Positions 2,176 to 64,000 of a stretch of DNA of 64,000 nt are shown in pieces. Every line of letters begins with the position of its first letter. Positions within the stretch are counted from its first letter, which is position 1. Source of the DNA: Oryzias latipes (taxonomy: Eukaryota; Chordata; Actinopteri; Beloniformes; Adrianichthyidae); contig NC_019867.2 in assembly GCF_002234675.1 (NCBI RefSeq), positions 32,430,614 to 32,494,613 on the forward strand, read 5' to 3'. The notes under the pieces are model-generated. The model had not been told where the DNA came from and ran no database searches. It saw only the letters and a program-made list of their open reading frames with translations. Both the position numbers and the translations under genes were made by a program.

Positions 2176-5100
2176 TGACCACGAACGCTGCTAGACCAAG
2201 AATGCTGCACGACCACGAACGGTGCAGGACCAAAAACGCTGCAGGACCACGAACGATGCACGACCACGAACGCTGCAGGGCCACGAACGCTGCAGGGCCA
2301 CGAACGCTGCTAGACCAAGAATGCTGCACGACCAGAACCGCAGCAGGGCCACGAACGCTGCAGGACCACGAATGCTGCACGACCACGAACGGTGCAGGAC
2401 CAAAAACGCTGCAGGACCACGAACGATGCACGACCACGAATGCTGCAGGACCACGAACGCTGCACGACCACGAACGCTGCTAGACCAAGAATGCTGCACG
2501 ACCACGAACGGTGCAGGACCAAAAACGCTGCAGGACCACGAACGATGCACGACCACGAACGCTGCAGGGCCACGAACGCTGCATGAGCACGAACGCTACA
2601 CGACCACGAACGCTGCAGGGCCACGAACGCTGCTAGACCAAGAATGCTGCACGACCAGAACCGCAGCAGGGCCACGAACGCTGCATGACCACGAACGCTA
2701 CACGACCACGAACGCTGCAGGGCCACGAACGCTGCTAGACCTAGAATCCTGAACGACCACGAACGGTGCAGGACCAAAAACGCAGCAGGACCACGAACGC
2801 TGCAGGACCACGAATGCTGCAAGACCAGAACCGCAGCAGGTCCAGAAACGCTGCAGGACCACGAACGCTGCAGGAACACGAATGCTGCAGGACCACGAAC
2901 ACTGCACGACCACGAACGCTGCAGGGCCACAAACGCTGCATGACCACGAACGCTACACGACCACGAACGCTGCTAGACCAAGAATGCTGCACGACCACGA
3001 ACGGTGCAAGACCAAAAACGCTGCAGGAACACGAACGCTGCAGGACCACGAACGCTGCAGGACCAGAACCGCAGCAGGACCAGAAACGCTACAGGACCAC
3101 GAACGGTGCAGGACCACGAACGCTGCAGGACCAGAAACGCTACACAACCACGAACACTGCAAGACCATGAACGCTGCACAACCACGAACGCTGCAGGGCC
3201 ACGAACGCTGCATGACCACGAACACTGCAAGACCATGAACGCTGCACAACCACGAACGGTGCACAACCACGAACGCTGCAGGGCCACGAACGCTGCATGA
3301 CCACGAACGCTGCAGGACCACGAACGCTACATGACCACCAACGCTACAAGACCACGAATGGTGCACGACCACGAACGATACATGACCACGAACGCTGCAG
3401 GGCCACGAACGGTGCAGGACCAAAAACGCTGCAGGACCACGAACGCTGCAGGAACACGAATGCTGCAGGACCACGAACGCTGCACGACCACGAACGCTGC
3501 TAGACCAAGAATGCTGCACGACCACGAACGGTGCAGGACCAAAAACGCTGCAGGACCACGAACGATGCACGACCACGAATGCTGCAGGACCACGAACGCT
3601 GCACGACCACGAACGCTGCTAGACCAAGAATGCTGCACGACCACGAACGGTGCAGGACCAAAAACGCTGCAGGACCACGAACGATGCACGACCACGAACG
3701 CTGCAGGGCCACGAACGCTGCATGAGCACGAACGCTACACGACCACGAACGCTGCAGGGCCACGAACGCTGCTAGACCAAGAATGCTGCACGACCAGAAC
3801 CGCAGCAGGGCCACGAACGCTGCATGACCACGAACGCTACACGACCACGAACGCTGCAGGGCCACGAACGCTGCTAGACCAAGAATGCTGCACGACCACG
3901 AACGGTGCAGGACCAAAAACGCTGCAGGACCACGAACGCTGCAGGACCACGAATGCTGCAAGACCAGAACCGGAGCAGGGCCACAAACGCTGCATGACCA
4001 CGAACGCTACACGACCACGAACGCTGCAGGGCCACGAACGCTGCTAGACCTAGAATGCTGAACGACCACGAACGGTGCAGGACCAAAAACGCAGCAGGAC
4101 CACGAATGCTGCAAGACCAGAACCGCAGCAGGTCCAGAAACGCTGCAGGACCACGAACGCTGCAGGAACACGAATGCTGCAGGACCACGAACACTGCAGG
4201 ACCACGAACGTTGCAGGGCCACAAACGCTGCATGACCACGAACGCTACACGACCACGAACGCTGCTAGACCAAGAATGCTGCACGACCACGAACGGTGCA
4301 AGACCAAAAACGCTGCAGGAACACGAACGCTGCAGGACCACGAACGCTGCAGGACCAGAACCGCAGCAGGACCAGAAACGCTACAGGACCACGAACGGTG
4401 CAGGACCACGAACGCTGCAGGACCAGAAACGCTACACAACCACGAACGCTGCAGGGCCATGAACGCTGCACAACCACGAACGCTGCAGGGCCACGAACGC
4501 TGCATGACCACGAACGCTGCAGGACCACGAACGCTACACGACCACCAACGCTACAAGACCACGAATGGTGCACGACCACGAACGATACATGACCATGAAC
4601 GCTCCACCACGAATGGTGCAGGACCACAAACGCTACACGACCACGAACGCTGCAAGACCACAAACGCTACACGACCACGAACGCTGCAAGACCACGAATG
4701 CTGCAGGGCCACGAACGCTGCAAGACCACGAACGCTAAAGGACTACGAACACTACACGTCCACAAACGCTGCACGACCACGACTGGTGTAGGACCACAAA
4801 CGCTTCACGACCACGAACACTGCAAGACCACGAACGCTGCAGGACCACGAACGCTACACGACCATGAACGCTGCAAGACCATGAATGCTGCACGACCACG
4901 AACGCTGCACGAACGCTGCACGACCACGAACGCTGCACGACCACGAACGCTGCATGACCACGAACGCTACACGACCACGAACGCTGCTAGACCAAGAATG
5001 CTGCACGACCACAAACGCTGCAAGACCAAGAATGCTGCACGATCATGAACGCTGCACGAACACGAACGCTGCACGAACGCTGCACGACCACAAACGCTGC

Positions 5101-5226
5101 ACGAACGCTGCACGACCACAAACGCTGCAGGGCCACGAACGCTGCATGACCACGAATGCTACACGACCACGAACGCTGCTAGACCAAGAATGCTGCACGA
5201 CCACGAACGGTGCAGGACCAAGAATG
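2176..5226 (+). repeat. 17-bp minisatellite array, left block
   Basis: About 180 head-to-tail copies of a 17-bp unit close to ccacgaacgctgcagga, with recurring variants (ggtgca, gctaca, ccaagaatgctgcacg, ccagaaccgcagc). Variant blocks recur at long distance: the marker catgagc occurs at 2582 and 3721 (1139 = 67x17) and aagaccagaaccgcagcaggtcc at 2821 and 4113 (1292 = 76x17), showing higher-order segmental duplication inside the array. Since 17 is not divisible by 3, each frame cycles through one 17-residue peptide. Few units create stops, so long spurious frames exist on both strands. I do not treat these as genes. Confidence 0.95.
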
Positions 5227-5442: not shown

Positions 5443-8391
5443 TTACTTAGCAGCGTTTAAGGCCACGGTGGCTCTCGGATAGAAGCTGTTTTTTAATCTG
5501 TTTGTCCTTGTTTTAATTGTTCTGTATCTCCTGCCTGAAGGCAGCAGTTCAAACTGGGAATGACCGGGGTGTGATGGATCCAGCAGAATGTTTTGAGCCT
5601 TTTTTAGGCAGCGGGAACTGTACAGTTCTTCCAGGGATGGGAGAGGGCAGCCGATGATCTTCTGGGCTCTCGTGGCGACTCTCTGGAGAGCTGTCCTAGC
5701 CGCAGCTGTGCAACTGGCAAACCAGGCACAGACACAGTACGTTAAAATGCTCTCTATTGAGCAGCGGTAGAAGGACACCAGCAGTTTCTCACTCAGTTTG
5801 TTTTTCTTTAAAAGCCTGAGAAAGTACAGTCTCTGCTGGGCCTTCTTCACCAGAGCAGTGGTGTTGGCGCTCCAGGTCAGGTCCTGCTCAATGGTGACGC
5901 CCAGGAGCTTGAAAGCAGCCACCCTCTCCACACAATCCCCACCAATAGACAGTGGCTGAATGACAGTTTTTTTCCTCCTGTAGTCCACCACCATTTCCTT
6001 GGTTTTTGTTGTGTTGAGGATTAGATTGTTTTTTTCACACCAGACACAGAGCCGCTCCACCTCGTCCCGGTAAGCGGACTCATCATTCCCAGAGATGAGC
6101 CCCACTACTGTGGTGTCGTCTGCAAACTTAATGATGGTATTGCTGGGGTGGGTGGAGGTGCAGTCTTGTGTGTAGAGGGTGTAGAGCAGGGGGCTCAGCA
6201 CACAACCCTGTGGGGAGCCGGTACTGAGGGTGAGAGCTGTCGACGTGTGGGACCCTACTCTAACCCTCTGGGGGCGGGCTTTCAAGAAGTCCAAAATCCA
6301 GAGGCATGTGGAGGTGGGGAGTCCGAGGGCCTCCAGTTTGGAAACAAGTCTGTGAGGGAGGATGGTGTTAAAGGCGGAACTGAAATCCACAAACAGCAGC
6401 CTCACGTAGTTCCCCGGTTGCTCCAGATGGGGCAAAGCAGTGTGGAGAGTGGTGGTGATGGCATCTTCTGTGGACCTGTTCGCCCTGTATGCAAACTGGT
6501 AGCTGTCAAGTGTTGATGGAAGGCATGAGGTAATGTGGTTGCGTACCAGTTTCTCAAGGCATTTTGTGATGATCGGGGTCAAGGCGACGGGTCTATAGTC
6601 CTTGAGGCCTGTGATTGTGGATGTTTTGGGCAGAGGGACAATAGTTGAGGATTTGAGGCAGGGTGGGACAATGGACTGATGTAAGGAACGATTGAAGATC
6701 TTAGTAAAGACCCCCGCCAGCTGGTCTGCACAGTCCTTCAGCACCTGTCCAGTGATGCCATCAGGTCCGACAGCCTTCCTCGGGTTCACAGACCTCAGCG
6801 TGCGCCTCACCTCATGTTCCTCTACCCTGAGGGAGGGGCCGTTGTTCGCTGATGCCTGTAATGCAGCTGTCTCTGGTGGCTCCACCTCGAAGCGGGCAAA
6901 GAAGAGGTTAAGCTCCTCTGCCAGTGAAGGGTTCCCATCAACAGCAGCAAGGTTTGGTCTGTAGTTGGTTAGATGTTGGATCCCTTGCCAAACCTGCCGT
7001 GTGTTGTTTGTTTTGAGGTTGTCTTCCATTTTTTGCTTGTAGTCTATTTTGGCCTGTCGGATGCCTCTCTTCAGGTTTGCTCTGGCAGAGCTGTACAGGT
7101 TCCTGTCACCGGACCTGAAGGCTGTGTTCCTCTCCCGCAGCAGTCGCTGGACCTCTCTGGTCATCCAGGGTTTTTGGTTTGGATACACTCGGATGTGCTT
7201 TTCCACAGTAACAGTGTCTGTGCAATGGTTGATATAGCACAGGACTGCTGCTGTGTGCTCCTCCAGGTCTGGGTGGTCGAAAATCTCCCAATTTGTTCTT
7301 TCAAAGCAGTCCTGCAGCTGGTGGGAGGCACCTTCGGGCCAAGTTTTAATAGTCTTTCTTTTGGTGGGAGCCCGTTTCCTGAGGGGGGTATATGCAGGGG
7401 CTAGGAGCAGGGAAATGTGGTCTGACTGGCCCAGGTGTGGGAGCTGTATAGCTCTGTAGCCATGTTTTATGTTGGAGTAAACTTTGTCTAATGTTTTTTC
7501 CCCTCTGGTGGCGCATTTCACATGCTGATGGAACATCGGGAACACAGATTTTAATTCAGCATGGTTAAAGTCCCCGGCAATGATGTGCACAGCCTCAGGA
7601 TATTTGTCTTGGTTGCTGCTAATCGTGCTATGCAGGAGTCCCAGTGCCGAGTTAGCATTAGCATCTGGTGGTATATACACAGCAGTTGCCATGACTACAG
7701 TGAACTCTCTTGGAAGATAAAACGGGCTACATCTGACAGTCACATATTCCACGTCCGGAGAGCAGTGACTGGCTACAGTCACTGCTCTCCGGACGCACCA
7801 GTTATTGTTCACATATATGCACAATCCCCCTCCTTTGCTCTTACCGGAGTCGCCGCTCCTGTCGTAGCGATGTGCCGTGTGGCCTGCTAGCTCGATAGCC
7901 GCGTCCGGTATGGATGAATGAAGCCAGGTCTCGGTGAAAATCAAAACACAACAGTCCTTGACGATCCTGTTTGTTGCCACTTGGAGCTGAAGTTCGTCCA
8001 TTTTGTTTCCAAGGGAACGTACATTAGCAAGAATAATGCTAGGGAGCGGTGGTTTGTTTGGGTTCTTACGCAGCTTCGCCAGTACACCAGCCCGGCAACC
8101 CCGCTTTTGTTTTCTGTCCCTGCGCCGCCTTCGCCTCCTCCCTGTGGGGATGGTAATCCACGGGGAGCCCGGGGTCCTGATAATATCCTTCGGGATGTTA
8201 TGAGAGTGAAAAAAGTCGGCTGTAACCGCTTGTTCACATTGTAATCCTAACTTTAGGAGCTCATGCCGGCTGTAGATGTTGTCTGCCCAGCAGGATGTAG
8301 TCCAAACGATAAGTAGTTCACAGAAAAATAGCCATAAAAAGCACCGGAAAAGAGAGCACAGAGCCGCCGCGTCTATGCGCGCCGCCGCCAT
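5443..8391 (-). CDS. LINE A endonuclease / reverse transcriptase, intact 982-codon ORF
   Basis: This single open frame encodes the enzyme for target-primed reverse transcription. In order: a hydrophobic, Cys-rich N-terminus (about 10-35); an Arg-rich run (85-97); an apurinic-type endonuclease (about 119-330) with LANVRSL, the FTETWL glutamate (E154), GDFNHAE (D273) and SDHISL (D323/H324); a reverse transcriptase (about 580-830) with VDFSSAF (D669), GSPQGCVLSP and the FADD catalytic pair (D758/D759); and a C-terminal region ending in SGRRYR...RLKNSF. I chose the ATG at 8391 because its context (acaccATGG) is strong and the open frame upstream is only 17-bp satellite read-through. No stop or frameshift interrupts it. 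No separate ORF1 was seen. It could be recently active, but activity cannot be judged from sequence. Confidence 0.9.
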   Translation of the reverse strand: MAAARIDAAALCSLFRCFLWLFFCELLIVWTTSCWADNIYSRHELLKLGLQCEQAVTADFFHSHNIPKDIIRTPGSPWITIPTGRRRRRRRDRKQKRGCRAGVLAKLRKNPNKPPLPSIILANVRSLGNKMDELQLQVATNRIVKDCCVLIFTETWLHSSIPDAAIELAGHTAHRYDRSGDSGKSKGGGLCIYVNNNWCVRRAVTVASHCSPDVEYVTVRCSPFYLPREFTVVMATAVYIPPDANANSALGLLHSTISSNQDKYPEAVHIIAGDFNHAELKSVFPMFHQHVKCATRGEKTLDKVYSNIKHGYRAIQLPHLGQSDHISLLLAPAYTPLRKRAPTKRKTIKTWPEGASHQLQDCFERTNWEIFDHPDLEEHTAAVLCYINHCTDTVTVEKHIRVYPNQKPWMTREVQRLLRERNTAFRSGDRNLYSSARANLKRGIRQAKIDYKQKMEDNLKTNNTRQVWQGIQHLTNYRPNLAAVDGNPSLAEELNLFFARFEVEPPETAALQASANNGPSLRVEEHEVRRTLRSVNPRKAVGPDGITGQVLKDCADQLAGVFTKIFNRSLHQSIVPPCLKSSTIVPLPKTSTITGLKDYRPVALTPIITKCLEKLVRNHITSCLPSTLDSYQFAYRANRSTEDAITTTLHTALPHLEQPGNYVRLLFVDFSSAFNTILPHRLVSKLEALGLPTSTCLWILDFLKARPQRVRVGSHTSTALTLSTGSPQGCVLSPLLYTLYTQDCTSTHPSNTIIKFADDTTVVGLISGNDESAYRDEVERLCVWCEKNNLILNTTKTKEMVVDYRRKKTVIQPLSIGGDCVERVAAFKLLGVTIEQDLTWSANTTALVKKAQQRLYFLRLLKKNKLSEKLLVSFYRCSIESILTYCVCAWFASCTAAARTALQRVATRAQKIIGCPLPSLEELYSSRCLKKAQNILLDPSHPGHSQFELLPSGRRYRTIKTRTNRLKNSFYPRATVALNAAK
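7752..7795. repeat. Perfect inverted repeat inside the LINE A ORF
   Basis: Two 19-base arms, cgtccggagagcagtgact at 7752-7770 and its exact reverse complement at 7777-7795, are separated by 6 bases (ggctac). The hairpin lies in the endonuclease coding region (about residues 199-213) and keeps the frame open. Perfect arms of this length are not required by the protein family. Confidence 0.95.
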
Positions 8392-8410
8392 GGTGTCAAC
8401 AATGCTGCTG

Positions 8411-9112
8411 AATGCTGCACGATCATGAACGCTGCACGAACACGAACGCTGCACAACCACGAACGCTGCACAACCACAAACGCTGCAGGGCCACGAACGC
8501 TGCATGACCACGAACGCTACACGACCACGAATGCTGAACGACCACGAACGCTGCAGGACCATAAACGCTACACGACCACGAACGCTGCAAGACCAAGAAT
8601 GCTGCACGATCATGAACGCTGCACGAACACGAACGCTGCACAACCACAAACGCTGCAGGGCCACGAACGCTACACGACCACGAAAGCTGCTAGACCAAGA
8701 ATGCTGCACGACCACGAACGGTGCAGGACCATAAACGCTGCAGGGCCACGAACGCTACACGACCACGAACGCTGCAAGACCAAGAATGCTGCACGATCAT
8801 GAACGCTGCACGAACACGAACGCTGCACAACCACAAACGCTGCAGGGCCACGAACGCTGCATGAGCACGAACGCTACACGACCACGAATGTTGAACGACC
8901 ACGAACGCTGCAGGACCATAAACGCTACACGACCACGAACGCTGCAAGACCACGAACGCTGCAGGACCACAAACGCTGCACGAACCACGAACGCTACACG
9001 ACCACGAATGCTGCAAGACCAAGAATGCTGCACGACCACGAACGCTGCACGACCACGAACGCTGCAGGGCCAAGAATGCTGCATAACCACGAACGCTGCA
9101 TGACCAAGAATG
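8411..9112 (+). repeat. 17-bp minisatellite array, middle block
   Basis: Continuation of the same array between LINE A and LINE B, about 41 units with more acaaacgctgc, atcatgaacgctgc and gaacacgaacgctgc variants. The register is continuous with the left block once LINE A is removed. Repeated sub-blocks (for example the atcatgaacgctgcacgaacacgaa segment at 8423, 8609 and 8797) show local duplication. Confidence 0.95.
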
Positions 9113-10292
9113 ACCAATCCTACCTGGCGGAAAGAACCATGTGTGTCAGTTTAGGTGGTTATGAATCCACCACAGCTCGGGTTCCCTATGGGGTCCCACA
9201 AGGGTCGGTTTTGGGACCTCTTCTGTTTTCTTTATATCTGTTACCTTTAGGGTCCATTCTAAGAAAACACTGCATTTCCTTTCATTTATACGCTGACGAT
9301 AGTCAGATCTATCTGCCACTAAAAAAGGATAATCTCTCTGTGACGCGGCTCCTGTCATGTCTCCATGACATTAAGGACTGGATGGCCCTAAGTTTCCTGA
9401 GTTTGAATGAAAAGAAAACAGAAGTTGTAATTTTTGGACCGAATGATTTTAGTGGACCGTCCCCGATTGATCTGGGCTCTCTGACTGGTTTCTTAAAATC
9501 AACTGTTTCTAACTTGGGTGTTAAATTGGACAGTAATTTTAGGATGGACCAACAGATAAGCTCTGTAGTGAAGTTAAGCTTTTTAAGCCTTCGCCAACTT
9601 GCTAAGGTAAAACCTTTTTTAACACCTGCACACTTTGAAACAGTAATCCATGCTTTCATCACGTCCCGGCTGGATTACTGCAACTCTCTTTATCTTGGAC
9701 TCAGCCAGTCGTCTCTCTTGCGTCTCCAACGTGTTCAAAATGCATCTGCTCGTCTTATGGTTGGAGCACGCAAAAGAGACCACATCACGCCGATCCTAGC
9801 ATCGCTTCACTGGCTGCCTGTGCATTTTAGAATTCATTTTAAGATTCTTCTGCTTGTTTTTAAATCTTTACACGGTCTTGCCCCGCTGTACCTCTCTGAG
9901 CTTCTCACTCCCTATTCGCCGGCACGGTGCCTCAGATCAGCTGATCAGATGCTTTTAGAGGTACCGAGATCCAGACGGAAGCTCAGAGGGGACAGAGCTT
10001 TTGCTGTAGCCGCTCCAAAGCTGTGGAATACTTTGCCGCTGGCCATTAGAGAAGCCCCTTCACTGTCCATTTTTAAAACCCGTTTAAAAACCCATTTTTA
10101 TGCTCTGGCTTTTAACCCAATATGAAGACCACTGTTTTTCTAACTGTTTACTGTTTTCTATAGTTTTATCTCCCTCTGTGTTTTCCCCCCCGTAACATGC
10201 TTTAATGTTTTTTACTGTTGTGTTCAGCACTTTGTCTCAACTACTGTTGTATGAAAGTGCTATATAAATAAAGTTGAGTTGAGTTGAGTTGA
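9113..10292 (+). mobile_element. LINE B, 5'-truncated L2-type retrotransposon
   Basis: The copy starts inside the reverse-transcriptase domain and ends with aagtgctatataaataaag followed by a (gttga)n tail, the classic L2/Maui-like 3' end of teleosts. It lies in the 17-bp array, with gaatg at 9108-9112 and 10293-10297 as the target duplication. The array resumes in exact register after it. It is in the opposite orientation to LINE A. Confidence 0.9.
9115..10125 (+). pseudogene. LINE B reverse transcriptase, C-terminal part only
   Basis: An open frame of about 336 residues encodes the second half of an L2-type polymerase. It starts near a YLAERT-like motif, then shows [13 protein letters not shown], the catalytic LYADD box and the conserved C-terminal segment ([32 protein letters not shown]). 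The endonuclease and the first RT blocks are missing through 5' truncation, so the copy cannot mobilise itself. The frame is still free of stops to its natural end, which suggests a young insertion. Frame continuity into the satellite upstream is accidental. Confidence 0.88.
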
Positions 10293-10434
10293 GAATGCTG
10301 CACGACCACGAACGCTGCATGACCACAAATGCTGCACAACCACAAACGCTGCACGAACACGAACGCTGCACGACCACGAACGCTGCACGACCACGAACGC
10401 TGCACGACCACGAACGCTGCACGACCACGAACGC
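10293..10434 (+). repeat. 17-bp minisatellite array, right block
   Basis: About eight further units, increasingly uniform (acgaccacgaacgctgc), close the array at 10434, where it passes abruptly into unrelated sequence (atcagtctacttg). The register continues that of the middle block across LINE B. Confidence 0.95.
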
Positions 10435-26598: not shown

Positions 26599-28520
26599 TC
26601 AGTTGTGGGAGGTCATGTGCCGTGACAGGTGGTGCCGCTCCCGGAAGGACTCGTTGCATATGGGGCACTTGAGCTTCTCCTCACGCCGCCGCTTGACCAG
26701 AGGCTCCATGGCGTATTCCTTTTTATGGTGCGAGCGCATGTGGTAAACCAAGTCTGAGGTCATGCGGAAAGAGGCGTTGCACTTGGCACACCAGTTCTGT
26801 GCCGGCAGGCAGAGGGAGGTGAAGGAGGGGGGCAACAGGGTGAGGGCGGAGGGCATCTGAAGCTGGATGGGTCCAGAGTTCTTGGGCCAGAAGGCAGTGG
26901 CGTAGACGAAGGGGTTCTGCTTGCTCATAGCGCCCGGCACCGGGCAGTTGGCTCCCAGCTCTGCGCCCTGCAGCTTGGCGGCCAGGTGGTCCGCCTGGTA
27001 GAGTCTGCTGGAGGAGATGGTGTCACCCACCGCTGGGTGGCAGTCCAGCAGCTTCGGGGGCATCACTAGGGGGGAAATCTGCGAGAAGGAGCGGGACGGC
27101 TGGCTGAAGGCGCTCTTCCTCTCGCCACCGCTGCCGCCGCCCTGCTGGCTGACGGAGGTAAAAGCGCTGCCCAGGGACAAGCTCTGCGGCGGCTGCGTCT
27201 CAGAGAGCACCTGCCTGATGCCCAGGTTCTTCTCAGGAGGATTCCCGCTGGGGCGGCCTCCCTCTTTGTTTTCAGAGTTCCTGGTGCTGCTGTGGTGTTT
27301 TGGGTTCTGAGGGGGCTTCCGGACCTCTGTGAAGGCGCTGCGCTTGGCCTCCCCAGGATCCGTTGAGCCTGGCGGGGAGAAGGACCTCTGGTTCTCCTCT
27401 AAGCTGTAAACTCCTCTGTAGTTCTGAGCAGAAGCTTCCAGCTCGTCTTTGGACTTGGTCTGCAGGAGGCCCGGCCTTCGGCTTTCTCGCTCATCTACGT
27501 CCGAGAACTTCCTCTTCCCTGAGCTCTCGCTGCAGATCTCGGCCTCCTTGTCGCTCGGCGGGCTGGTTCGGTTCTTTTCCAGATCCCGGGCCAGGTTGTG
27601 GAAGTCGGTGGAGGGCTTGGTGCTGTCCTGAGGGTTTCCAAAGCCTTCGGAGCGGCCCAGCTTTGGGCTGGTCCTGGGTGGGGGGCTGTTTGCGTGCTCT
27701 GTGCTTCTGTCTCTGCCGGACTCCTCGTCTGCTGAGCCGCCGCCCTGCAGTCTCTTGGAGCAACGGAACCGCAGGTGGGCCAAGAAGGGAAACTCAAACT
27801 GGAACCGCTGGTTGCAGTCTGGGCAGGTGTGATGGGCTGAAGCTGCAGGCAGAACCAGGACATTGGATCAAACGTTGGAGCTGTTTTTAATGACGGACTG
27901 TCAGAGGATTACTGTCAATAAGTCTTAAGTGGGGAGGGGCTAACTGCTCACCTTTACTCTTTGCGGGGGCCCTGCTGGAGCTGAGCAGCAGCAGGTCGAT
28001 CAGGTCCGTGCCATACCAGACCAGCAGCTCCTCATCCTTCTCGATGCGTCGAAGTGAGCGATAGAAGAGCTGCCCGTTCTTCACGTAGGCCTCCAGGTTC
28101 TGCTCCTCCTTGTCCCGAGCGGACTGGACCAGCCGCAGCCACATCAGACCCTCCGAGGTGCTGTTGGCCGCGGACGTGTCCACCTGCGCGCGCGCAAACA
28201 AAGGCTCACTTTTATATTTCCATAAATGTAAAAAAAATCTGGTTTTGATTTTTCCCTGAAAGAAATTAAATTACTCGAGACAAGAAGTCGTTCGGACTCA
28301 CCCTGAAGATGTACGGAGCCGCGCGCTTGTCGGTGGACTTGAGCGCGAGGAAGGCGATGCTGTCGTACATGGACGTGTGGCTGAGCGCGCACGGCCCGAA
28401 GATGGCGTGCGCGGGGATGTCGCACGTGGTGAAGACGCTCGTGAAGATGTCGGTGAGACACTGCTGCACCGCTTTGGCGTCCCCGTCCCAGACCAGCTTC
28501 TGAGAGCCGGACTCCTCCAT
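26599..28520 (-). CDS. prdm8: PR domain zinc-finger protein 8, three coding exons, 564 aa
   Basis: The coding exons (minus) are 28520-28302, 28183-27952 and 27842-26599, with GT-AG introns of 118 and 109 bases. Lengths 219+232+1244 sum to a frame ending in TGA at 26601-26599. Residues about 13-132 form the PR (SET-related) domain, starting near LVWDGDAKAVQQ and ending at LLVWYG. An atypical C2HC finger follows (C157, C160, H173, C178), then a long disordered Ser/Pro-rich middle with FHNLARDLE, KRSAF and SAFSQPSRSFSQ blocks, and two C-terminal C2H2 fingers (C502/C505/H518/H522 and C543/C546/H559/H563). PRDM8 is a nuclear repressor of neural and retinal genes in vertebrates, partnering a bHLHE22-type factor. 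That role is family knowledge. Mammalian PRDM8 is longer (about 690 aa), mainly through Gly/Ala expansions in the middle. The start at 28520 gives the family-like MEESGSQ. Fish can have two paralogues, so this may be prdm8 or prdm8b. Confidence 0.93.
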
Positions 28521-28530
28521 GTCCCACTGC
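28521..28530 (-). promoter_or_regulatory. Probable splice acceptor just upstream of the prdm8 start
   Basis: On the minus strand cgcccgcag|tgggacATGG gives a good acceptor 6 bases before the ATG, suggesting that the 5' UTR lies mainly in one or more upstream exons. I cannot place those exons. Confidence 0.5.
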
Positions 28531-28714
28531 GGGCGCGAGACACGCACACGTGAGCGCGCGGCTTTCACAGTGACCACATACACCAAATAAAGCGGCAAAA
28601 CTGAGGAACCGTAACCCCTAAATGCTCTTTAGAATTCTTTTTCCTGCCTTTACTCCTGATCCTTCAATCAGGTTTTATTCGTCATTTTAATCTGTTTCAA
28701 TGGGATGAAGTTAT

Positions 28715-52954: not shown

Positions 52955-53525
52955 ATCCTCTCCAGTTAGTCCCAAATGCTGCCGCAGACTCCCAACCAAA
53001 ACCAGCAGGAGAGACCACATTACTCCACGTTTAGTGTCTCTGCACTGAATGTGTTAGAATCAATTTTAAGATTTTAATGATTGCTTTTAAAGCACGCTGT
53101 GGTCTGGCCCCTAAATATCTAGCTGATCTCCTCGTTCCTTATGTGCCTGCTTGCAATCTTAGATCTTCGTCAAAAGACTTTTTAACCATCAGATTGACGG
53201 CCACAGGAGACGGGGCCTTTGCTATGAGAGCCCCAACACTCTGGAACGGTCTCCCAGAAGAAATCGGGCTCGCTGAGTCCCCACCAGTATTTAAATCTCT
53301 TCTAAAAACGTACCTTTACAGTGGTGCTTTTAATGCTTGTGCTGGTTCTTACATTTAAACTTGTGATATTATTGATTTCAGTGATTTGATAGATTTTAAC
53401 CGCTGTTTTATTTTGTCGTACTGTATTCTGTTTCTAATCCTGGTCTTTTGTCTCAGGTGAATTGTACAGCACTTTGTAATCTGGATTACATGCCATATAA
53501 ATAAAGTTTCTTATTTTTATTATCA
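52955..53525 (+). mobile_element. L2-type LINE 3' fragment
   Basis: Degenerate C-terminal polymerase coding sequence (QLVPNAAADS..., then an open segment with FKILMIAFKA, LAPKYLADLL and LWNGLPEEI) is followed by a 3' UTR ending tgccatataaataaagtttcttatttttattat. The C-terminal domain layout is like LINE B, but the sequence and tail differ, so it is another L2-group family. It is 5'-truncated with at least one frame break around 53040. Confidence 0.85.
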
Positions 53526-58510: not shown

Positions 58511-61500
58511 TGTAGGCTGTTGTGTTTTTGCTGTTTGTCGTGGATTTATCTGTTGATGAGTTTCTACACTTTGCTGCTTTTAGAAATTAAAGTTGTCATT
58601 TTTATCTGTCACTTGTGACTTCTCCTTCAGCCGAAACCCCTTGTGACGAATCGATGCACTGAATCCATTTCCCCAGCCGGCTGCATGCTTGCGCACACAC
58701 ACCTCCCCAAACAAAGACAAACACGCCGTCTCTTTGTTGTACGGAGGCCCGATCGGGAAACTGCAGCCAGTGAGCTAAAACACTGAAGCGAAAGAATTAA
58801 CATTCCAATTAAAATCTCATTAGACTTTGATTTGCCAGATAATTATCCTCGTGTGCCGCTGTTCTCTGGACTATTGTGATTTGATGAGGTGTGTTATAGT
58901 AATTACCTGGCTAGTTGTGTGACAACTAGAGAAAAGAAAGTCAATTTTGTTTGTTCTTGTAATCCATGTTTTAGTCCAACCTGAGCTGTAAATAATTGTT
59001 TTTTATTCTTAATGAGGTGAGAAAAGAAACATGACCAGAATTCAGATGTGGATATTTTCAGTGAAAGCACTAAATTCATAACAAAACTAAGTGCTATTGT
59101 TCTTCTCACACTTTGAAAGCCTGTAATGAAGTTGATTCTGTGCACACTTAGCAACCCTTTAACAGCAAAAAGGTTCCTTTTAAAGCTGAGTTTTTTATTT
59201 AGAGGACAGATCTGAACATCCGTCTTAACTTTCTTATTAATAGGTGTTTGTGTCTGTTTTCGTGTGTTTGTTCTGTAGTTTCTTGGGGTTTTGGAGGTTC
59301 AGGTCCCGTTCAGTTTTGGGCTTTTCTCTTCCCGCAGCAGGTTTGAGCGTTGAGCTGTTTTCTGAAACCTGGTTTTGCTTCTTGATCTGTTTTTACACTT
59401 GATCATTTTTCCTCCTTTCACATTTTGCCCTATAAAGAAAACTTCTTTCTTGTTTGTCTTTTCAGTTTTATTTTCTCATTAGGCCGACGATTTCCTTCTT
59501 CTTTGCTTGTTTTTTTAGTGAGGAACCAGTTTGGAGTGAATCAAAAAGCACAATATGCCGATGTTTTGTGGTTTTATCTCACAGAAGTCCAAAGTTTGCA
59601 CTGTCATCCATCAGGACATGACCCGTTCTCCAAACTGGATCACCACTTTCCTCTTTGGTCTTTACTGTTTCTTCTCTGCCACCGAGTCTCTCTGAAAACC
59701 AGTTCAGGAGCTGACACTCCCTTTGGAAACATTTCAACGGACCCACCTTCACGTTTACCACAAGTCACGATTATTTGAAGTATTTGTAGTCCCAGTTATA
59801 ATCAACATTTCATGGGTAATTCCAGAAATAAAAGGATTGACGGCTCATGAAGAACAGAGATTGGATTTTGACACACCAGTGACATACCTTCATATGTATG
59901 AGCAGAACTGCAGTAAACAAGGGAAATCCTATAATTCCAACATTTGTAGCAGCAGATTCAGGTAAACCAGGTAGAGCTCTCAACAGCCGTTGTGTAATTA
60001 ACCCCCCCCCCCAAATCCATCTGCAACACGTTACTCTTGCGTTGTTTGAGGAGGGCTGATGGGATGAGACACAGCCAGGAATTTCCTGCCTTTCCTGGAG
60101 AAACCCACCTGATTGTGTTCATCTAACCTGCGGGGAAGTTTGTCAGAAACACAGGAGCTATGAAATGAAGTGATGCTTCTACAGTAAATAGACACAACTG
60201 TGAAAACATTTGCATGATCTGCCTTGGTTTTCCTTTGCAGACTTTTGGACCGCTGCGCTGCCACATGGTCATGCTGCATTTCATCAGACGGTGCAGCTCC
60301 GCCGGTGGAGAGCAGCTTTCCTTTCTCTCAGCTCCACCGTTGGCTTTAGGAGTCTGGCTCTGGTGGAAGAAGAAGGCCACTAAATCATCCAGATTTGGGG
60401 ATTAGAAGCCCTCCACAGTGAATATAAAGACACCTGTAGTCTAAATGCAAAGATAAGTAAGCGGAATCTGTGAGCTTTGGAAACCTGCACCACAAAGGAA
60501 ACACGAGTGAGCTTTTCTTCTTCTGTTCTCCTCACTGTGGCCTGATAAAACGAAGGAACTGATGGAGGCAGAGAAGAAAGTCAACTAAAAGCGTCTTCAG
60601 GAGTTCTGCAGCGGCGGTCAAGCTGGGAGAAAACTTCCATCTACACGTCAGAATATTCAGAATTTACAGGGAAAGGTGTACGAAAAAAAATATTTATATT
60701 TCTCTGAGTGATTTAAGACTGTGGAATCGTTTGAATACATACAAATCCATTTCTTCAGCATCCACTGCACATGTTCATCTGTGACGGAAAACAAACTTAT
60801 TTTAAATCACATTTCTGCTTCACCGTTTTCTTTTTGTTGTATGAAAATATGTTGCTTTTAAATCCTAACATTCAAAAAGTCCAAATATGTAAAATAATCA
60901 TTTAAATTTTGTCCAAACAGACAGAACCAGACATTGCTGCTATGATCCACAGGGGTCAACCGGGGTCGACATGTCCTCTGCATCCGTTTCTCTCATCGTT
61001 TTGTTTCCGGTGAACATCCATGTACCTCATCTTTCTTCTTCCTGTTTTGAAAACCTCTTTTAACTCGGGATGAATACAAAAATGTACAAAATTATCACAA
61101 CATGAAACCTTATCGCAAGTTTGCATGCAGTTCTTTTGCGCATGCGTCGTTCTGAGACCTTTATGTGCTCTCGGAAGAAAAAAGAAACAAGGTGAAGAAA
61201 ACACGATTAAAGCTTAAATACAAAACACGTTGTTTTCTCGTGAGTCTCTTTCCTTTGCTGTTATTCTGGGGTTTAAATGTTACATGTCGATCATTACAGG
61301 AAGGCTGAGTTACCCAATGGACAGGGTTGTGGGTGAAATACAGCTGCGGTCCTGAGTATTTCTGTCTCACGAGCGACAAAACATCTGTCTGTATGATGAC
61401 ATCTGTGAATATGATGCGCTGGACAAATCATTTTTTATGAACATGTTCTCATCTAAAAGTCCATTTTAGTTATTTAACAATGGTAAAAACTTTTTTCCAC

Positions 61501-62192
61501 TAAAAAACCTTGAAGCCAGCACCGGTTGTCAAATGTACGAGCTTCCTGTGGACCCGTGAAGGCAGCCGAACTTTTCCTGAAGTTGTCCCGTTAGCGGATG
61601 CGACCTCTTTCTTCAGACTCGGTCGGTTCTGGAGGACTCTGTCTTCTGGGTACGGCGGGTTCCGGCGGGTCCGGGGAGCGGCTCCGTGACTCAGAGACAT
61701 GTAGAAATCCAGCCGCTGACGTCGTTGCGGGGTTTCCCTAAATGCTGCACCGCGGTCAAGTGAGCCGACATCTGCGGAAGCGCGGTCACGCCAGCCGTCA
61801 CTGACTTTTAGCATGCGCGTTTACATCATAGTTTACGGTACACACACCCAGCGAGCTGGAAAGACGGCATAAAGCGCTGATATCACCCATGTCACTGTTA
61901 TACCCATTATAGAAATTACATGTACTGTACTCTGAAATAAATGAGAGTTATTGCATGCCCTGTATCGTTATTTGATGTACAAATGTATTCATTTGGATTG
62001 CATGTCTGTTCATTCCATAATAAACTACCAGAAATAACGTGTTTTGTCTGAAATATAATAATCAGACAGATTCTAAAAGTGAGATTCAACACTGACAAGA
62101 GTGTTTTGTGGGTTGTTGAGCATGACATGGAATGGAATCAAGCAGAAATGAAGAAACTCCAAGTAAATTCACATCTGGTCCTGTCAACTCTT
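58511..62192. other. Gene-poor interval upstream of antxr2
   Basis: No gene is recognised. 58790-58920 is rich in homeodomain-type sites (caattaaa, agataattat, gtaattacc). 61540-61860 is CpG-rich (tgacgtcgttgcgg, cggcgggtccgg) and could be a displaced promoter for the gene that starts at 63175, but the intervening satellite makes this uncertain. Confidence 0.45.
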
Positions 62193-63181
62193 TCTAAAGT
62201 TGCTTCATTTAAGGTGACACAAAACTTTCACTGGATTATTGTTGGTAATGATGTTCACTAATATCACAGCAAGTTTGATGAAAAATGACTGGAGAATATT
62301 AGAGATATTAAAGTTATAGAACATTTTGGGTCTCCTCATTCACAGACAGTGTGTAATATGTAAACCTTACAAAATGCTACTTCTTTCAAAGGTGACGCAA
62401 AACTTTCACTGGATTATTGTTGGGAATAATGTTCACTAACATCACACTAAATTCGATGAAAATTGACTGTAGAAAAGTAAAGATATTAAAGTTATAAAAC
62501 AATCTGGGTTTCCTCATTCACAGGCAGTGTGTAATATGTAAACCTTACAAAATGCTACTTCTGTCAAAGGTGACGCAAAACTTTCACTGGATTATTGTTG
62601 GGAATAATGTTCACTAACATCACAGCAAGTTTGATGAAAAATGACTGGAGAATATTAGAGATATTAAAGTTATAGAACAATTTGGGTCTCCTCATTTACA
62701 GACACTGTGTAATATGTAAACCTTAAAAAATGCTACTTCTTTCAAAGGTGACGCAAAACTTTCACTGGATTATTGTTGGGAATAATGTTCACTAACATCA
62801 CAGCAAGTTTGAAGAAATTTGACTGGAGAAAATTAAAGATATTGACATTATAGTACACCTAAGCATCCTGCCTTGACAGATAAAGTAAAACATGTGAACC
62901 ATCCAAAATACCACTTTTTTCAAAGGTGACGCAAAAATTTCACTGGATTATGGTTGATAATGATGTTCATGATCATCACAGCAAGTTTGAAGAAATTTGA
63001 CTGTAGAAAAGTAAAGATATTAAAGTTATAAAACAATTTGGGTCTCCTCATTCTCAGGCAGTCAGTAATATGTAAACTTTACAAAATGCTACTTCTGTCA
63101 AAGGTGACACAAAACTTCCACTGGATTATTGTTGGTAAGGATGTCCATGATCATTACAGCAAGTTTGAAGGAAAATGACTG
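62193..63181 (+). repeat. 178-bp satellite array, about 5.5 monomers
   Basis: The landmark ggtgac(a/g)caaaa recurs at 62213, 62391, 62569, 62747, 62925 and 63103, exactly 178 bases apart each time. Monomers contain tggattattgttgg, atcacagcaagtttga, aatgactg and atattaaagttata and differ by scattered substitutions but no net indels. The last monomer stops inside aaaatgactgg at about 63181, where antxr2 exon 1 coding sequence begins. Confidence 0.96.
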
Positions 63182-63332
63182 GAAAAAAGTTTTGGCGGCC
63201 TTCTCCAGGGAAGGGGAACCGGTGGGCTCCCGCCGCCCTGACGCTGCTCTGCCTGGGCTTGGTGGCGTCATGCTGCGGCGCGGACGAGGCGTCCTGTCAC
63301 GGAGCGTACGACCTCTACTTTGTCCTGGACAG
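63175..63332 (+). CDS. antxr2: Anthrax toxin receptor 2-like, exon 1 only (partial)
   Basis: This exon encodes an N-terminal signal peptide and the first strand of the von Willebrand A domain of a type I membrane receptor. In vertebrates that receptor binds collagen and laminin matrix and is also used by a bacterial toxin. From the ATG at 63175 the frame gives 52 codons plus 2 bases: a basic N-terminus, a hydrophobic core (APAALTLLCLGLVAS), a cysteine, then AYDLYFVLD, followed by the donor AG|GTAAGG at 63333. That VWA start and splice position fit ANTXR1/2. I prefer antxr2 because prdm8 is the neighbour. The next exons (with the MIDAS DxSxS) lie outside the window. An in-frame TGA is at 63166-63168, so 63175 is the only in-frame ATG, and it lies in the last satellite monomer. 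Confidence 0.75.
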
Positions 63333-64000
63333 GTAAGGGGGTCGAGGCCCCCTCCTCGGGGGATCGGGTGGGGCTTCTGGCCACAGTGAAGGGGGGGGGG
63401 GGGGGGGGGGGGGGGGCATGGTCACGAGGAGACCGCTGAAGGCGACTCAAACTGTATCATGGACGTGCTTCAAACACCTGCTCGTTTCTGGGGCTGCGTG
63501 ACGTCACACACCCCACCCGCTGCACCTGACCCTCGCTTAACCCATGCACAGCTGGTTGGGGGTCCGAACCGTAGACCGTATGTGAACTGGACTCGGTGTG
63601 TGACCCCTCCCTCTTGTTTTCCAAACAGGAAGTACCTTCTAGAGAAATAATCAGCTGTTTCTCGTTCTATTGGTCAGAGGAAACATTCTTGCTCTGATTC
63701 CCCATTTAAACTTCTGTTCATTTTATTCCTGATACTTTTCCAAGTTGCGGTTTCCCATAATAAAGTAGGTGGTGCCCTCTGGCCCCCACCTCAAATGTTC
63801 ATGATTTTATGTTGCTTGCTTTCAAGTGGTAGGGGCGTGGCCTTCCAGCAAGCTCACTCCTGATTTGAGTGGTTGCCATAGAAACAAGGGCTCAGACTGC
63901 CTCGCACCAGTCACTGCTTACTGTCTTCCTCTGGCTCCAACATGGCGGCGTCCGTATTGCTAAAAAATGGCAATTTAATTGACTTGAAATGGTTGGAGCC
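63333..64000 (+). other. Start of antxr2 intron 1
   Basis: Begins with a good donor (GTAAGG) and contains a 26-base G tract at 63391-63416. The right edge (about 63840-64000; ggttgccatagaaacaaggg, tccaacatggcggcgtcc) reads like a dispersed fish repeat, but its ends are outside the window. No second exon was found. Confidence 0.6.

What the first reader, a model, noticed from the sequence alone, without database searches (positions are those of the whole stretch)
63166..63332. The antxr2 start codon lies inside a satellite monomer
The only in-frame ATG for the signal-peptide exon (63175) is at the same monomer position as the ATG at 62285 in the first unit (890 = 5 x 178), and an in-frame TGA at 63166 closes the frame upstream. 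The initiator and codons 2-3 (ATG ACT GGA) are therefore satellite-derived, and host-like coding sequence starts immediately after. Either a satellite expansion replaced the native 5' end and supplied a start codon, or the true start is in an upstream exon, or the assembly joins non-adjacent DNA.
Basis: partly seen in the sequence, partly recalled or inferred. Interest (0 to 1): 0.75.

Follow-up and report, generated by a model that had tools for sequence, protein, structure and literature searches.

The report
Repeat insertion abuts medaka antxr2 start
In medaka fish a short stretch of repetitive DNA sits directly against the start of the antxr2 gene, but a related fish shows that the start codon was probably already at this spot, so the repeat more likely squeezed in beside it than created it.

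Summary
A 178-bp tandem array of 5.5 units (62211-63190) runs into the signal-peptide exon of antxr2. The ATG at 63175 lies in the last half-unit, an in-frame TGA sits at 63166, and the exon has no other in-frame ATG. The exon peptide is identical (53/53) to NCBI's Oryzias latipes antxr2 isoform X1, annotated with the same start, so the window is medaka or a very close relative.

The reading 'the satellite supplied the start' is weakened by relatives. The O. javanicus protein has M-S-G-K-F-W-R-P at the homologous place (medaka M-T-G-K-K-F-W-R-P). That Met lies 57 residues from the end of DLYFVLD, the commonest spacing among the fish orthologues held. The initiator looks ancestral in position. 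Twelve bases (63172-63183) fit both the satellite and a native start, so the junction may have formed at microhomology.

A CpG-rich upstream block (61500-61875) and the CpG-rich exon 1 region are separated by 1.3 kb of CpG-poor DNA, suggesting an insertion into the native promoter or leader. The array may lie in a 5'-UTR intron; this is inferred. No transcript, read or relative's DNA could be examined. It is a known kind of event with an unusually intimate junction.

The parts
61500..61875 (.). CpG-rich block upstream of the array, putative native promoter / 5' leader
   Evidence: GC 0.57, 33 CpG, observed/expected 1.09. Promoter role inferred.
61759..61760 (+). Best-scoring splice donor between 61300 and 63170 (exon would end at 61759, TCAA|GTGAGC)
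   Evidence: Score 3.85, 98.6th percentile of 7373 GT sites in the window; recalled weight matrix; no transcript evidence.
61876..62210 (.). AT-rich, CpG-poor segment to the left of the array, probably part of the inserted DNA
   Evidence: GC 0.34, 2 CpG, observed/expected 0.20; no other copy in the window.
62211..63190 (+). Satellite-like array, 178-bp unit, 5.5 copies, units 75-96% identical to one another
   Evidence: TRF, nhmmer and pairwise identities, column counts at the right end.
63058..63058 (+). Best-scoring splice acceptor in the array (exon would start at 63058); the same site recurs at 62346, 62524 and 62702
   Evidence: Score 5.56, 98.9th percentile of 7742 AG sites; recalled weight matrix; no transcript evidence.
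63166..63168 (+). In-frame TGA that closes the antxr2 frame upstream of the ATG
63172..63183 (+). Tract (AAAATGACTGGA) that fits both the satellite and a native start; probable place of the junction
   Evidence: 12 of 12 bases equal at least one full monomer; M-T-G against M-S-G of O. javanicus. Microhomology is inferred.
63175..63332 (+). antxr2 first coding exon (signal peptide): 52 codons plus two bases
   Evidence: 53/53 identity with O. latipes antxr2 isoform X1, P0001; tblastn; donor at 63333.

Best explanation
About 1.3 kb of CpG-poor repeat DNA (a 335-bp AT-rich segment plus a 5.5-unit, 178-bp satellite-like array) was inserted in the medaka lineage between the CpG-rich promoter block and the first coding exon of antxr2. 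Its right end joined within the first few codons, through about 12 bases shared by a monomer (AAAATGACTGGA) and the native start (ATG, Ser/Thr codon, Gly codon). The initiator kept its ancestral place and frame, and from codon 4 on the sequence is native. Translation most likely still starts at 63175. Transcription most likely begins in the upstream CpG-rich block, and most of the array is removed as a leader intron or bypassed. Shown: the array, the junction, a Met at the homologous place in O. javanicus, the CpG discontinuity. Inferred: that it is an insertion younger than the split from O. javanicus, the microhomology, the promoter position, the splicing.
For: O. javanicus P0002 aligns KNMSGK-FWRPPPRKG with RKMTGKKFWRPSPGKG of the window; from that internal Met it has the modal 57 residues to the motif end, seen in 59 of 138 Met-starting proteins, with 55-59 in 92 of 138. 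Of 11 models longer than 62 residues, 9 have an internal Met at 56-58. Only 3 of 2076 blind satellite joins give M-[S/T]-G(K) directly before the exon, against 511 with any open in-frame ATG. At 63184 medaka has A, all five full monomers G: Lys instead of Glu; Lys is at position 4 in 41 of 60 sequences of that length, O. javanicus included. CpG per 100 bases: 8.8 (61500-61875), 0.60, 0.51 (array), 7.3 (63191-63600). NCBI's medaka protein starts at the same Met.
Against: Medaka has 52, not 57, residues before the motif end. Satellite similarity goes on to 63190, past codon 4, as if codons 1-5 were satellite. Evidence for the native start is protein-level, from one Oryzias species whose model carries 27 further residues upstream; those residues have no credible match in the window (best E 0.74 at 53232; best in 59000-63170 E 8.8). 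The O. melastigma model (P0003) lacks MSGK altogether. Without a gap, the bases upstream of the ATG fit O. javanicus no better than ordinary ATGs. No target-site duplication or right flank marks an insertion.
Confidence: 0.55

Rival explanations
1. The satellite replaced the native 5' end and supplied the initiator and codons 2-5; the likeness to the O. javanicus start is coincidence.
For: Codons 1-3 equal two monomers, and similarity runs to 63190 with one mismatch. A blind join gives an open in-frame ATG in 511 of 2076 cases, 212 of them within 6 codons. Positions 2 and 3 vary among fishes, so new residues would be tolerated. The medaka N-terminus is shorter than the usual 57.
Against: M-[S/T]-G(K) arises in only 3 of 2076 blind joins; Lys at codon 4 is not what any full monomer would give.
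Confidence: 0.15
2. The true start lies in an upstream exon spliced into the antxr2 exon downstream of 63175, and MTGKKFWRP is not translated in the main transcript.
For: A fair acceptor lies at 63209 (97.4th percentile). Four open, in-phase ATG-donor combinations exist between 59000 and 63100. Some fish models (P0003, P0007, P0023, P0040, P0042) have other residues before the RW/QW/GW position.
Against: None of the four uses the best donor or the CpG-rich block. FWRP is shared by medaka and O. javanicus at protein level. NCBI's medaka isoform X1 starts at 63175. Three of those five models (P0007, P0023, P0040) lack a first Met, as in incomplete models.
Confidence: 0.12
3. The assembly joins non-adjacent DNA, or collapses a longer array, at 63190.
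For: The junction is in repeat DNA, and the window is rich in simple and tandem repeats.
Against: NCBI's medaka protein carries MTGKK joined to FWRP, though perhaps from the same assembly. The homology of MTGK to MSGK would be odd for a misjoin. CpG-rich DNA on both sides fits one interrupted block.
Confidence: 0.1
4. The monomer arose in place, by tandem amplification of the old antxr2 leader including its start codon.
For: The monomer carries ATGACTGGA, resembling a native start.
Against: The two array ends are out of phase (5.5 units). The monomer is CpG-depleted (observed/expected 0.19) in a CpG-rich setting. Monomers continue after GGA unlike the exon from 63191 on.
Confidence: 0.05

Closest known systems
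1-10 kb insertions close to transcription start sites in medaka strains (Ichikawa et al. 2017, PMC5705604; passages seen)
   Same: Same species group; an insertion of about 1 kb in front of a gene.
   Different: The reported 101 insertions with raised transcription increased GC and CpG; this one is AT-rich and CpG-poor and reaches the first codons. antxr is not mentioned in the main text.
Short satellite-like arrays in euchromatin near genes, TCAST of Tribolium (PMC3411249; passages seen)
   Same: A short array of satellite-type monomers next to a gene.
   Different: The words 'start codon' and 'exon' do not occur in that paper's main text; here the array touches the initiator.
Satellite junctions in molluscs (PMC5139131; passages seen)
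   Same: Abrupt change from mid-monomer to unrelated DNA.
   Different: The passages describe neighbours as anonymous DNA or mobile elements; here the neighbour is a coding exon. 'Microhomology' does not occur in that main text.
Oyster non-autonomous Helentrons with central tandem repeats (PMC7492417; passages seen)
   Same: Short array (a few units, monomers mostly 160-180 bp in the oyster set) with AT-rich flanking sequence on one side.
   Different: Those elements have left and right flanks; here the array ends directly on the exon with no right flank.

Membership tests
antxr2 (teleost orthologue), first coding exon | Signal-peptide exon ending in the conserved CHGAYDLYFVLD with a phase-2 donor | tested here: met
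   53/53 identity with P0001; 145 of 149 proteins held carry the motif; donor at 63333. Pfam gives no family for this short piece; the best PDB match is anthrax toxin receptor 2, E 0.067.
antxr2 (teleost orthologue), first coding exon | Initiator Met about 57 residues before the end of the motif | tested here: inconclusive
   Medaka has 52 because of one extra residue and six missing; the Met itself aligns with that of O. javanicus.
Satellite-like tandem array | Head-to-tail monomers over 100 bp with high mutual identity | tested here: met
   178 bp, 5.5 units, 75-96% pairwise identity among the units.
Satellite-like tandem array | Same monomer at other places in the genome | not testable with these tools
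   No other copy in the window; the whole-genome search did not complete.
Helentron-type element with central repeats | Left and right flanks around the array | tested here: not met
   The array ends on the exon at 63190; an AT-rich left segment exists. A truncated element is not excluded.
Helentron-type element with central repeats | No target-site duplication | tested here: inconclusive
   Longest match between the ends is 7 bases, reached in 19.1% of shuffles.
Start codon supplied by a repeat | No initiator at this place before the insertion | tested here: inconclusive
   A Met is present at the homologous place in the O. javanicus protein, which speaks against it; relatives' DNA could not be read, and the O. 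melastigma model lacks this stretch.

The most novel reading that the evidence does not exclude
The satellite array is the working 5' end of medaka antxr2: transcription starts inside the CpG-poor array, and the initiator with codons 2-5 is read from satellite DNA that replaced the native start with a near-identical one.
Probability: 0.1. Interest if true: 0.6.

Novelty: new member of a known kind. Interest (0 to 1): 0.33.

Why it matters
It is a checkable case of repeat DNA apparently separating a conserved gene from its CpG-rich promoter block while the start codon survives in place. Three medaka strain assemblies, 5'SAGE tags and RNA-seq are described in print (PMC5705604, passages), so the age of the insertion, the leader structure and any effect on expression can be read directly. 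It also shows that base identity with a repeat does not prove that a start codon came from the repeat: over bases shared at a junction the two sources cannot be told apart.

Tried and rejected
The 53-residue exon alone found no homologue, because the search keeps only proteins of similar length. Pfam finds no family in the exon. Rfam gives no match at E <= 1 in 61300-63500. The bacterial promoter scan is near its shuffles (5 found, mean 3.6) and does not apply to a vertebrate.

Satellite pattern scans: 0 in viral contigs and 0 in prokaryote genome contigs for a 22-mer; 6 viral contigs for a 17-mer. Compared with 61800-63340, those six match over 17-22 bases around the 17-mer, plus one 34-base match at 82% and weaker scattered ones (best E 4e-4); judged chance for such a scan. 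Neither collection is meant to hold fish DNA.

A target-site duplication CTGGAAA (61856, 63179) was considered and dropped: 19.1% of shuffles reach 7 bases. The O. javanicus 27-residue extension was sought in the window without a credible match (in one search the output was cut, so its separate query was not seen there). In-situ amplification of the old leader was considered and set low. A one-base-gap fit of the upstream bases to O. javanicus ranks 63175 first among 3016 ATGs for 4 and 6 codons, but ungapped it is ordinary, so it is not used as support.

Paper searches for a 178-bp fish satellite, for antxr2 in zebrafish or medaka, and for repeat-supplied start codons or dispersed satellites showed no paper on this locus in their listings, which are capped. 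I read passages of six papers only.

Full report
What is there. The window ends in the first coding exon of antxr2. Five full 178-bp monomers and a half-unit cover 62211-63190. The half-unit runs into the exon: ATG 63175, in-frame TGA 63166, no other Met in the 53 codons, donor CAG|GTAAGG at 63333. Column by column, 18 of 19 bases from 63172 to 63190 equal at least one full monomer, but only 1 of 9 from 63191 to 63199. The ATG occurs at this monomer position in 3 of 6 units.

Which gene and organism. The padded exon query returned 117 proteins at E <= 10 among 121 candidates. First is 'anthrax toxin receptor 2 isoform X1 [Oryzias latipes]' (P0001), 53/53 identical and beginning with the same MTGKK. 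A full-length search scored 7992 candidates (those sharing most words), found 1659 at E <= 1e-100 and listed 120. With the first search I held 149 proteins, each standing for a cluster at 90% identity. Of these, 145 carry the DLYFVLD-type motif and 138 of those start with Met. The distance from Met to the motif end is 57 in 59 of 138 and 55-59 in 92 of 138; medaka has 52.

The start looks ancestral in place. O. javanicus (P0002) reads ...TSVKN-MSGKFWRPPPRKGRLVDGRNQW..., and tblastn aligns KNMSGK-FWRPPPRKG with RKMTGKKFWRPSPGKG in the window. Counted from that internal Met, O. javanicus has the modal distance of 57. Of 11 models longer than 62 residues, 9 have an internal Met at 56-58, so the long O. 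javanicus model does not by itself argue against a start at MSGK. Medaka has one extra Lys and lacks six residues further on, which gives 52. Against this: the O. melastigma model (P0003) lacks MSGK, and the 27 extra O. javanicus residues have no credible counterpart in the window (best E 0.74, far away).

Native or satellite bases. If a monomer were joined blindly to the exon, an open in-frame ATG would appear in 511 of 2076 joins, but M-[S/T]-G(K) directly before the exon in only 3. At 63184 medaka has A where all five full monomers have G; this is Lys instead of Glu, and 41 of 60 sequences of that length have Lys at position 4. On the other side, bases 63185-63190 again fit monomers. Among 3016 ATGs of the window, 63175 ranks first for combined upstream and downstream fit to the O. 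javanicus start over 4 or 6 upstream codons when one gap is allowed, and two ATGs reach its sum over 8. Without a gap its upstream fit is ordinary (30%, 68% and 40% of ATGs do as well), so I do not lean on it. The simplest reading is a joint inside the 12 bases 63172-63183; whether those bases are satellite or native cannot be decided from one genome.

Setting. CpG density per 100 bases is 8.8 in 61500-61875, 0.60 in 61876-62210, 0.51 in the array and 7.3 from 63191 to 63600. This looks like one CpG-rich promoter region split by about 1.3 kb. That the upstream block holds the promoter is inferred. A leader running unspliced from 61760 would carry 37 ATGs. The best donor in 61300-63170 is at 61759, and the best acceptors recur in four monomers (63058, 62524, 62702, 62346), so removal of most of the array as a leader intron is possible. 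With the 63058 acceptor, upstream ATGs at 63070, 63086, 63141 and 63147 would remain; the weak acceptor at 63160 would leave none. All splice scores use a weight matrix written from memory.

Rivals. An upstream coding exon spliced to 63209 has four open, in-phase candidates between 59000 and 63100, none using the best donor or the CpG-rich block. A misjoin cannot be excluded without reads. In-situ amplification is unlikely, because the array ends are out of phase and its CpG is depleted. A boundary repeat (CTGGAAA) is at chance level.

Compared with what is known. Short satellite arrays near genes are known in Tribolium (PMC3411249), abrupt satellite junctions in molluscs (PMC5139131), arrays of similar monomer length inside oyster Helentrons (PMC7492417), and 1-10 kb insertions near start sites in medaka (PMC5705604); of each I saw passages only. 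This case differs by reaching into the first codons. The Helentron label fails on one structural feature, the right flank. No listing or passage I saw describes this locus.

Verdict. A real junction, probably ordinary in mechanism, with an instructive twist: identity with a repeat made a probably conserved start codon look repeat-derived.

Noticed in passing
62346-62391, 62524-62569, 62702-62747, 63058-63103: Four of the five full monomers carry an acceptor-like and a donor-like site 46 bases apart (97th-99th percentile of the window), like small pseudo-exons (recalled weight matrix).
   Followed up: partly
62146-62158 and 62198-62210: A 13-base inverted repeat (92%) whose right arm ends exactly one base before the array begins, perhaps a structural feature of the element.
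   Followed up: no
61486-61514 and 63165-63193: A 29-base, 76% inverted repeat links the upstream CpG-rich region's edge with the junction at the start codon; may be chance.
   Followed up: no
26599-28617, - strand: Reading frames with C2H2 zinc fingers that look like prdm8 (name recalled, not tested), the usual vertebrate neighbour of antxr2 (recalled).
   Followed up: partly
2177-5224, 8410-9110, 10293-10434: Three arrays of the same 17-bp minisatellite (GACCACGAACGCTGCAG register) around what look like reverse-transcriptase reading frames at 5443-8754 (-) and 8803-10125 (+) (identity of the frames from inspection only).
   Followed up: no
63391-63416: A run of 26 G in the first intron just after exon 1, a likely trouble spot for sequencing.
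   Followed up: no
P0003, P0007, P0023, P0040, P0042 (homologues): Several fish antxr2 models have unrelated short peptides before the W of the signal peptide: missed starts by automatic annotation, or alternative first exons.
   Followed up: no
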